Assembly: GCF_040436345.1 (NCBI RefSeq)
Contig: NC_133237.1
Location: 22,883,749 to 22,947,748 of the forward strand
Length of the DNA stretch: 64,000 bases
DNA from: Pagrus major
Taxonomy: Eukaryota > Chordata > Actinopteri > Spariformes > Sparidae
Reading direction: 5' to 3'
The notes under the pieces are model-generated. The model did not search any database, had not been told where the DNA came from, and was given only the letters and a program-made list of their open reading frames with translations. Positions 43,201 to 46,200 of the stretch are shown piece by piece; positions within the stretch are counted from its first letter, which is position 1; every line of letters starts with the position of its first letter. The position numbers and the translations under genes are program-made.

Positions 43201-46200
43201 TAAATAACATTAACAGCACATATTGTGATACTGCTCATACATTTTCTCCATCAAACTCATGAGTGCTACATGCATGTTATGCATGTTCCGTGTATTTGTG
43301 ACCCAATAAGTATCTCAGGGGTTAAACTTCAAGGCAAGGTCACTGAGACTAAGGCCACGGACAAGACCTGTGATCGATCCACAGATGAGCTAATGTTTTA
43401 CCATAGTATTGCATGTGCACATCCAATATAAGTTGGACAGACCACCATCCAAATTCATAATCCACTGGATATTCTGATGATGCCAACTTCGGCACAGCTG
43501 AGACAGACTTATAGGTTTTATATCAAAAAAAACTTCCTCCTTAACTAAATTGCTGGAAAAGAAAAGAAAAACTTTTGAACAACTGAGTGAAACAGACAAC
43601 TGGACTACAGTGAGTCTGTGAGCGACTAGTATAATGAAGATGATCTTGGGCCTGTGTCTGCTTTTTTTGGCTGGGGGGTTAAGAGTCCATGCAGGCCTGC
43701 TCAGGAAGACCAAGGCTGCCCCACAGGAGGAAGTCAGCGTGCTCATGTTTGGTGTCATACAGCTCAGTGAATCCCTTAACCTTGTTTATGAAACCACTGA
43801 GGCAAAGATAGCTAAAATCAGCCAGACTTTGATAAGCCATGAGGGGACTCTCCAAGAGCTGGGGATGCAGACTGAGCAGGCTGCAGAGGTGGAGAAACAG
43901 ATAAAAGAAGATATACAGCTGCTACAGGTAAGAAAATACAGAGATATGTAAACAAAAGATTCCCTGTGTGCTGTTGAATGGCTGTAAAATCACAAGAGAG
44001 ATAACCCCTGAGAATTACAATCAAACAGCAGATCTAAAAGACGTAACATGCAGGAGCAGAGGAGGAAAGAGGCAGTATGTCAAGGATCCAAAATCCCCAT
44101 CAGATTAAACCTTTGTGTTTCTCAGCTCTCAAGAGAAACAACTGCTGAACAGACATAACAATGCAGCTCCTTGCTGATTTTAAACAACACATCAATGTCT
44201 ATACTATGTCTACCCTTATGTAACATGAATGGGCCCATCATTTATCTTTTATATAAGTCTCATAATCACCATGTGATACTTTCATTTATTTCCCTGATGT
44301 TTATGGATAAATCTAACTCTTTTATCTGAGATAAGAGAGTGAGTGTGTCATTAGAGGGCTGCACGTTACACTGTGGAGCAGGCAGCTGCCAGCTGCACTG
44401 GAACTGTTGTTGGGGAAGAGGATAATATGGGCAGATGCTCTTTTGACAGGCCCAGATGGCCGAGCAACAGGCTCAGACCAAGAAGACGAAAGACCGGCTG
44501 ACCGGCATGGAGCAGGAAGAGGTGGAGCTGAAGACAAAAGTGAAGAAGTTGGAGGCGTATCTCAACGACTCTGTACCCACCAGCATCAAAGAGCTGCAGG
44601 TAAGAGAACGCTGAAAACGTCAACTCTACGTATTTAAATACCAGTGACTGATTTATGGACGTATAGTAAACATTTACTTAATCTTTACTCCTGTTTTTAG
44701 GAGAGAGCAAAGGAGCACTCTGATGTCTTGCAAGGTTTAAGGCATTTTATCCGGTTCCAAAAGGAGAATATTGACACTCATGGTGATCAGCTCTCCAAAC
44801 TGCAGAAGATAGTGAGTGACTTGTTCACAACAATTGTTTTGAACATTTTTATAGTTTTTCATCAATTAAATTCACCTTTTTATTTCCAGATTCCAGAGTG
44901 AAGCTATGGCATAGCCTCCACTGAGGTCTCCCAGTCTACACAGCTCTGAAAGTGACAAGTCCATACAGATCCCAACTGCACTCCCTTCCTGCTATGTATG
45001 CTATAGGTCTATTGTATGGCCAGAAACTATTTTTTGTTTGTAATCTTGTGATATTGTCCTTGTTGTTGGCCCTTATCTATTTCTTATGTAAAGTATATTA
45101 CGTCTTTTATTTATCTTGATTTTGTAAACTTTGTGTTTAAAATGAATCATTCAAATATAGTTGTTCATTTATGGATGTTTTTTTCACCAAACAGTATCTT
45201 GTGTTATTTGTCAATACAAAGATAGAAAAAAAACCCTAAAGGTAATAGCTTGTAGTTGTATTTATATATTTGACAAAACACTATCAATAAAAATGTGTTT
45301 CACCTTAAAAACCAGAACCTGCTGTCCTCTTTTCTGAAAACTACGGACTAAAGTTAAGGCAGAAAGAAAATCAATATCCAAACAAACACACTAAGCCATG
45401 GAATGAAGGGGTGAATGTACGTACATCTGTTTTGATAGGTCAACTTACACAGATTGTGTAAACAGTATGTGTGTATGTGTCTGTGATTGGTGAACACTCA
45501 CCTGTAGGTGGTGTGTGGAGTGTACACGTAGCGAGCAGGGAACTCCAGCACCTCTTTGGTTGGGCGAACACGCAGGTCTGGGTAAGGCTTCACATGTAGC
45601 AGCTCTGGTGACAGACAGTAATGAGGGGAGTCCGGCGCTGGAGAGATGTCAATCTTCAACTGGGCTGAGGGACAAAATAAGTGATGAATACACAGCAAGA
45701 CAGAAAAAAAAACACTGATCATTAATCCGCCACTAATTTTTATACATGAATTCAGACAATTTTATATGAAATCTTGATTTTGTTGGCATATCAAATCTAC
45801 CTGTAACGGGCCTCAGGCGTCGCAAAACAGAGGACGGTCTGCGCATATCTGCCAGATACTTGTAAAGGTCCTCATCACTCAGTCTGTCGCCCTCCTTCAT
45901 AGCCACAAACAGAAAAGCAGAGTTTGTATTGGGATCCCAAAATCTCAATGACATCGTCAGTACAGTACTAAAAAGTTACCTACTACTAAAAATATTTGAT
46001 GGTGAAGCATTTGTGCAGATTTAGTTTTGAAGGAAACTGCAGGTTACAAACTTCATTTGATCTTATCACACAAACAAAGAAAACATTTTAAAGTCAGAAG
46101 TTACTTAAAAACTTTTAAACTTTAATTTAAAGTTTTCTGATAACCAATTCCTGCACTTCATTCTATGATAGCAAGTGTCCATCCTCTTTTAAAGATATCT

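What the first reader, a model, noticed from the sequence alone, without database searches (positions are those of the whole stretch)
43634..44901. Intact angptl8 in a teleost, nested antisense in dock6 intron 14
Four phase-0 exons encode a 188-aa secreted coiled-coil protein without a fibrinogen domain, inside a dock6 intron and on the opposite strand. Mammalian ANGPTL8 has the same placement in DOCK6, and ANGPTL3 sits in DOCK7. This implies that the nested pair predates the split of fish and tetrapods and probably the vertebrate genome duplications. Early literature, as I recall it, emphasised mammals for ANGPTL8, so a clear fish ortholog with the lipase-inhibitor-like N-terminus matters for how triglyceride partitioning evolved.
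Basis: partly seen in the sequence, partly recalled or inferred. Interest (0 to 1): 0.7.

Follow-up and report, generated by a model that had tools for sequence, protein, structure and literature searches.

The report
Fish version of fat hormone ANGPTL8
A fish genome carries what looks like an intact copy of ANGPTL8, a mammalian blood-fat regulator that several papers say fish do not have, in the same intron of the same neighbouring gene as in humans.

Summary
Four phase-0 exons (43634-43927, 44450-44599, 44701-44811, 44890-44901) encode a 188-aa coiled-coil protein antisense in dock6 intron 14, counted by coding exons. Human ANGPTL8 lies antisense in DOCK6 intron 14 (PMC5592946).

Family membership does not rest on recalled sequences. 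A profile of the same fish's angptl3/angptl4 ranks exon 1 first of 1621 window ORFs and gives the spliced protein 44.0 bits, against 11.5 for the best of 4000 decoys. The four best non-self hits in the genome are those paralogues. Exon 3 has their 111-nt phase-0 length. A tree using recalled human and mouse sequences puts it with ANGPTL8 (99/100; alternatives AU p ≤ 0.004).

New here: one angptl3 of this genome lies antisense in dock7, in the intron at the same codon and phase. One nested pair therefore probably predates the dock6/dock7 split.

Papers of 2017, 2023 and 2024 call ANGPTL8 absent from fish or lower vertebrates. This locus contradicts them. Expression and function are untested; the lipase-inhibitor motif is only partly kept.

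The parts
43634..43927 (+). angptl8 exon 1 (coding): signal-peptide-like start, inhibitor-motif region (fish residues 32-48), first helix; 98 aa
   Evidence: rank 1 of 1621 window ORFs against fish angptl3/4 profile, E 4.8e-7
43928..44449 (+). angptl8 intron 1 (GT..AG, phase 0); the 4 angptl3/4 paralogues have one uninterrupted exon over this part
44450..44599 (+). angptl8 exon 2, 50 aa coiled coil
   Evidence: rank 2 of 1621 ORFs, E 0.07
44701..44811 (+). angptl8 exon 3, 111 nt, phase 0/0; length and phase equal to angptl3/4 exon 2
44812..44889 (+). angptl8 intron 3, 78 nt, no in-frame stop (retention would give a 214-aa form)
44890..44901 (+). angptl8 exon 4 coding part (I-P-E-stop); protein ends shortly after the coiled coil, without a fibrinogen domain
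45286..45291 (+). candidate poly(A) signal AATAAA of angptl8
42793..45501 (-). dock6 intron 14 (phase 2), host intron
45502..45664 (-). dock6 exon 14
   Evidence: genome search
42675..42792 (-). dock6 exon 15
29041..53967 (-). dock6, span matched by recalled human DOCK6; DHR-2 lobe A in 31847-32182 and lobe B in 30068-30529
9401..14883 (-). kank2 (KN motif and ankyrin repeats), a gene listed among those flanking human ANGPTL8; the number 2 is inferred from the location
   Evidence: figure legends in PMC5237311 and PMC10475376

Best explanation
This is the teleost orthologue of ANGPTL8: a coiled-coil protein with a signal-peptide-like start and no fibrinogen domain, nested antisense in dock6 intron 14. 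Shown here: the sequence relation, the gene anatomy and the location. Inferred history: it and angptl3 (nested antisense in the same intron of dock7) descend from one ancestral nested pair copied together with its host, and the angptl8 copy lost its fibrinogen part through an early stop after the coiled coil. Inferred from mammals: the protein is made in liver or fat on feeding and assembles through its helices with Angptl3, which exposes or stabilises the N-terminal lipase-binding helices and inhibits lipoprotein lipase, steering fat between tissues. Because its own inhibitor motif is only partly kept, it more likely works as a partner that arms Angptl3 than as a free-standing inhibitor.
For: Exons, phases and splice sites. 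A profile built only from this fish's angptl3/4 gives 44.0 bits for the spliced protein; best of 4000 shuffled or heptad-shuffled decoys 11.5. Of 14 non-self matches at E <= 10 in the 786-Mb genome, the four best are the two angptl3 and two angptl4 loci (E 2.6e-4, 4.8e-4, 0.0076, 0.074); the other 10 have E >= 0.5. The 111-nt phase-0 exon is shared by angptl8 and 4 of 4 paralogues. The tree split of fish angptl8 plus human/mouse ANGPTL8 from ANGPTL3/4 has 99/100 support; four alternative placements are rejected, AU p 7.6e-7 to 0.004; 0 of 100 data sets simulated with the fish gene beside ANGPTL3 reach the observed likelihood gain, largest 3.5 against 16.1. Residues shared with both mammalian ANGPTL8 and absent from all eight ANGPTL3/4 rows include N49, V51, Y52 and E56. 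Same host, intron number and orientation as human. The dock7 nest has the same codon and phase.
Against: No RNA, second fish or dN/dS: splicing, expression and purifying selection are unshown. Overall identity does not discriminate: 45 of 183 to human ANGPTL8, 42 of 185 to the fish's own C11 Angptl3, 41 of 185 to its C21 Angptl4; exon 3 is no closer to ANGPTL8 than to ANGPTL4. Human and mouse sequences were recalled. Topology alone is fragile: 35 of 100 data sets simulated without the grouping still gave it. The inhibitor motif has diverged: [12 protein letters not shown] against LANGLLQLGQSL in the fish's own Angptl3. None of the HNF1-, ChoRE- or LXR-like matches lies between dock6 exon 15 and the start codon, and the window's counts do not exceed chance. 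Human R59 is in exon 2, its fish counterpart K58 in exon 1.
Confidence: 0.82

Rival explanations
1. It is a fish-specific, truncated copy of angptl3 (or angptl4) that landed in dock6 independently of mammalian ANGPTL8.
For: In the middle of the protein (residues 78-150) it is closer to Angptl3 (17 of 73 with each fish Angptl3) than to human ANGPTL8 (12 of 73), and whole-protein identities are nearly equal. Pairwise scores to recalled human ANGPTL8 and ANGPTL3 are close, 155 and 144.
Against: AU p 7.6e-7 to sit with fish angptl3, 0.004 with all ANGPTL3, 0.002-0.004 with ANGPTL4. Same intron number and orientation as human. dock7/angptl3 has the same position and phase. No second dock6 or recent copy of exon 1 was found in the genome.
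Confidence: 0.06
2. It is a decaying or unexpressed relic of angptl8: true homology, but no longer a working gene.
For: No expression evidence. Inhibitor motif partly lost. Papers report no fish ANGPTL8.
Against: Intact frame across four exons, consensus splice sites, poly(A) signal, and four of six zipper leucines kept with V and I at the other two.
Confidence: 0.1
3. It is an unrelated coiled-coil gene whose similarity to ANGPTLs is compositional.
For: Pfam gives only matches below the families' cut-offs (18 at E <= 1, best E 0.0033 at 17.6 bits against a cut-off of 27); no PDB sequence match at E <= 1.
Against: 44.0 bits against 11.5 for the best of 4000 decoys, 2000 of them heptad-preserving; four angptl loci top the genome-wide list; location in dock6 intron 14.
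Confidence: 0.02

Closest known systems
Mammalian ANGPTL8 (lipasin, betatrophin)
   Same: Nested antisense in DOCK6 intron 14; about 190-200 aa coiled-coil protein without fibrinogen domain; tree partner; zipper positions L35, L38, L45, L49, L60, L67 (PMC9036128) are V34, L37, L44, L48, I59, L66 in fish
   Different: Found in a fish; 45 of 183 identical to (recalled) human; inhibitor motif partly diverged; the counterpart of human R59 lies in exon 1, not exon 2
ANGPTL3 (here: C11 and C21 copies)
   Same: N-terminal helix, 111-nt phase-0 exon, nested antisense in the homologous dock7 intron (C11 copy)
   Different: Both copies have fibrinogen-domain exons and an intact GLLQLG motif; exon 1 has no intron where angptl8 intron 1 lies
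ANGPTL4 (here: C11 and C21 copies)
   Same: N-terminal helix and 111-nt phase-0 exon
   Different: Fibrinogen-domain motifs downstream; no dock match near either copy; rejected as closest clade
angptl9 (non-mammalian family member, PMC5237311)
   Same: ANGPTL family, present in fish
   Different: The paper keeps it in a tree from which ANGPTL8 was left out for lacking the fibrinogen domain; no angptl9 sequence was compared here

Membership tests
ANGPTL8 | Gene nested antisense in DOCK6 intron 14 | tested here: met
   human placement from a passage of PMC5592946
ANGPTL8 | Short coiled-coil protein lacking a fibrinogen domain | tested here: met
   188 aa, stop in exon 4; no convincing fibrinogen match in the window, best E 0.13
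ANGPTL8 | Groups with ANGPTL8 rather than ANGPTL3 or ANGPTL4 | tested here: met
   99/100, AU, simulation 0 of 100, but on topology alone; human/mouse sequences recalled
ANGPTL8 | Leucine-zipper-like positions of the N-terminal helix | tested here: met
   4 of 6 leucines kept, other two V and I; positions from PMC9036128, a model by its authors
ANGPTL8 | Exon-intron positions of the mammalian gene | tested here: inconclusive
   R59 is in human exon 2, its counterpart K58 in fish exon 1; no mammalian gene sequence was at hand to compare the other borders
ANGPTL3/4/8 clade | Lipase-inhibitor motif (G-L-L-Q-L-G core) | tested here: inconclusive
   Fish angptl8 has GVIQLS; angptl3/4 of the same genome have GLLQLG
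ANGPTL3/4/8 clade | Sequence relation to angptl3/4 beyond coiled-coil composition | tested here: met
ANGPTL3/4/8 clade | Phase-0 111-nt coiled-coil exon | tested here: met
   angptl8 exon 3 and exon 2 of 4 of 4 paralogues
ANGPTL8 | Secretion | not tested
   N-terminus looks like a signal peptide by eye; no predictor was run
ANGPTL8 | Feeding-induced expression in liver and fat; complex with ANGPTL3 inhibiting LPL | not testable with these tools
   No RNA or protein data

The most novel reading that the evidence does not exclude
Teleosts have a working Angptl3/Angptl8 switch for feeding-dependent fat partitioning, older than the fish/tetrapod split and used without the mammalian lipase carrier GPIHBP1 (reported absent in lower vertebrates, PMC11529983). 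The ANGPTL3 and ANGPTL8 arms of the switch came from one nested DOCK-ANGPTL pair copied whole, so the current statement that the complex is absent below mammals would be wrong.
Probability: 0.45. Interest if true: 0.75.

Novelty: new member of a known kind. Interest (0 to 1): 0.6.

Why it matters
[quoted passage not shown] a 2023 paper repeats this (PMC10475376). An intact fish copy suggests that at least some of these absences were failures to detect a fast-changing gene. It makes the origin of the fed-state lipase switch testable in laboratory fish, and the matched dock6/dock7 introns give a clean date marker relative to the host duplication.

Tried and rejected
Pfam and PDB sequence searches of the protein gave nothing usable. 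Promoter motif scans (HNF1, ChoRE, LXR element) were at chance for the window and no match fell between dock6 exon 15 and the start codon. Topology alone was rejected as sufficient evidence because 35 of 100 simulated data sets gave the same grouping (25 of the trees were left from the timed-out, 75 were built with the fast setting; the simulating tree had a near-zero internal branch); the likelihood gain was used instead. Simulation was done for one alternative only, the fish gene beside ANGPTL3. No fold prediction was run: the spliced protein is not read letter for letter from the DNA, and exon 1 alone would add little. A second fish species for dN/dS was not available (no relatives held). 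The genome-wide fibrinogen-domain search did not complete and was not repeated. I asked whether fish angptl4 has human-like neighbours (kank3, rab11b; recalled); neither of two short motifs was found in the 20 kb examined at each locus, which is a weak test.

Literature searches that bear on 'not in print': (angptl8 or betatrophin with fish or vertebrate words), in PMC open-licence papers only. Listings seen: 4 of 4, 25 of 69, 25 of 27,819, 20 of 814, 4 of 4, 36 of 36, 3 of 3. Passages were opened in 4 of the 36 papers (PMC5237311, PMC11529983, PMC9604320, PMC5855653) and in all 3 (PMC8319833, PMC5855653, PMC12194948); the rest of those two lists were seen as listings only. Subscription papers, preprints and database annotations (NCBI, Ensembl) were not searched; fish angptl8 may already be annotated there.

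Full report
What is there. The window is C23:22883749-22947748 of a 786-Mb, 25-contig genome. Its gene content (globin genes beside kank2 and dock6, two angptl3 and two angptl4 genes) fits a teleost by recalled knowledge; no tool names the species. Exons 43634-43927, 44450-44599, 44701-44811 and 44890-44901 have GT..AG borders and phase 0 throughout and give 188 aa. An AATAAA follows at 45286, before dock6 exon 14. Intron 3 is 78 nt with no in-frame stop, so a retained form of 214 aa is possible.

Host. Recalled human DOCK6 matches the minus strand exon by exon from 53967 to 29041. Pfam finds DHR-2 lobe A (26.8 bits, cut-off 26) and lobe B (97.3 bits), and the KN motif and ankyrin repeats of kank2 at 9401-14883. 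KANK2 and DOCK6 are listed among the genes around human ANGPTL8 in figure legends of PMC5237311 and PMC10475376. Counting coding exons from the first, the nested gene lies between exon 14 (45664-45502) and exon 15 (42792-42675), in intron 14, phase 2. Exons 1, 2 and 4 of that count are weak matches on their own (E 0.054, 0.032, 0.16). PMC5592946 (passages seen) places human ANGPTL8 in DOCK6 intron 14, transcribed in the opposite direction.

Family, without recalled sequences. The protein was searched against the whole genome at E ≤ 10: 17 matches, of which 3 are its own exons and 14 are elsewhere. The four best of the 14 (E 2.6e-4, 4.8e-4, 0.0076, 0.074) are two angptl3 and two angptl4 genes, on C11 and C21, named from their sequences; the next is E 0.54. 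A profile of those four ranks exon 1 first (E 4.8e-7) and exon 2 second (E 0.07) among 1621 ORFs of at least 25 aa in the window; a kank2 coiled-coil ORF is third (E 0.25), and exon 3 is not in the list at E ≤ 10. It gives the spliced protein 44.0 bits, E 4.3e-12, against 11.5 bits for the best of 4000 shuffled decoys, half of them heptad-preserving.

Gene anatomy. All four angptl3/4 paralogues have one long first exon (159-176 aa) followed by a 37-codon, 111-nt phase-0 exon with AG and GT borders (for the C11 copies, for the C21 copies). Exon 3 of angptl8 is likewise 111 nt, phase 0. Exons 1 and 2 of angptl8 (148 aa) together match the paralogues' exon 1, so angptl8 has an intron that they lack. 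Exon 4 ends the protein after three residues, and no convincing fibrinogen domain is in the window, whereas both angptl3 copies have one downstream.

Which member. With six recalled human and mouse sequences and five from this genome, the split of fish angptl8 plus mammalian ANGPTL8 from ANGPTL3 and ANGPTL4 has SH-aLRT/UFBoot 99/100. Four alternative placements are rejected (AU p 0.004, 7.6e-7, 0.004, 0.002). A control for long branches: of 100 data sets simulated on the tree with the fish gene beside ANGPTL3, 35 gave the ANGPTL8 grouping as topology, but the largest likelihood gain was 3.5 units against 16.1 observed. Ten residues are shared by the fish protein and both mammalian ANGPTL8 rows and by none of eight ANGPTL3/4 rows; one of them, P187, lies beyond the end of those rows and does not count, leaving nine. 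Four residues go the other way under a looser rule (at least 6 of 8 rows). Over the first helix (fish 32-77) identity is 18 and 17 of 46 with human and mouse ANGPTL8 and 9-14 of 46 with ANGPTL3/4. Over residues 78-150 ANGPTL3 is closer (16-18 of 73 against 10-12). Over exon 3, ANGPTL8 (7-8 of 37) and ANGPTL4 (6-8 of 37) are equal. Over the whole length the figures barely differ (45 of 183 with human ANGPTL8, 42 of 185 with C11 Angptl3). The case for ANGPTL8 thus rests on the first helix, the likelihood tests and the location together.

The matching nest. On C11, dock7 (named by the match and by its angptl3) runs on the plus strand; the exon matching dock6 exon 14 ends at 25590569 and the one matching exon 15 begins at 25601581, and both dock6 and dock7 split the same arginine codon AG|G. 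angptl3 lies inside that intron on the minus strand, from 25596081 to 25592909. A dock8-like gene (name inferred) on C5 has only about 730 bp at the corresponding place and no angptl match in the loci fetched there. The C21 angptl3 has no dock match at E ≤ 0.001 in the 40 kb fetched around it, and only one dock7-grade match was found in the genome. The simplest reading is one ancestral ANGPTL-in-DOCK nest, copied with its host. Quagliarini et al. suggested a duplication for the mammalian genes (as cited in PMC4172915; the original is not held). The identical codon and phase seen here is a sharper form of that argument; I did not find it stated in the passages I saw. That dock6 and dock7 split in a whole-genome duplication is recalled, not tested.

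Function. Mammalian work (passages of PMC8319833, and PMC9036128) has ANGPTL8 induced by feeding and forming a complex with ANGPTL3 that inhibits lipoprotein lipase in oxidative tissues. The fish protein keeps hydrophobic residues at 6 of 6 zipper positions, leucine at 4. Its inhibitor motif is weaker than in the fish's own angptl3/4: GVIQLS against GLLQLG. I therefore favour a partner role with Angptl3 (about 0.5-0.6) over independent lipase inhibition. No liver-type promoter site stood out.

Against the literature. [quoted passage not shown] PMC10475376 (passages) repeats it; [quoted passage not shown] PMC8319833 instead says that ANGPTL8 arose before the mammalian branch. My searches found no paper describing a fish angptl8, but they cover open-licence papers only, several listings were partial, and genome annotations were not searched.

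Verdict. A real, probably working orthologue of a known gene where current papers say there is none; the kind is known, the occurrence and its exact nest match are the news.

Noticed in passing
G000 C21, L007/L018-L021 (10900001-10940000): The second angptl3 has no dock match in the 40 kb fetched and the genome shows only one dock7-grade match: the host copy appears lost or moved while the nested guest was kept.
   Followed up: partly
G000 C11 24.705 and 25.596 Mb; C21 10.919 and 13.415 Mb: angptl3 and angptl4 are linked on both C11 and C21, whereas (recalled) human ANGPTL3 is on chromosome 1 and ANGPTL4 on 19 near ANGPTL8; support for a single ANGPTL4 clade is low (66/68). Hidden paralogy of fish and mammalian ANGPTL4 is possible.
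   Followed up: partly
window 44812-44889: angptl8 intron 3 is 78 nt and open in frame; retention would add 26 residues.
   Followed up: no
window 1430-1894 (+) and 3832-4122 (-): Globin genes in opposite orientations near kank2 and dock6 (Pfam Globin).
   Followed up: no
window 33539-33733: Long dinucleotide repeat (TA/CA type) between two dock6 exons.
   Followed up: no
L034, C11 near 24714807 (-): A DPP8/9-like peptidase exon (named by eye) lies within 10 kb of the C11 angptl4.
   Followed up: no
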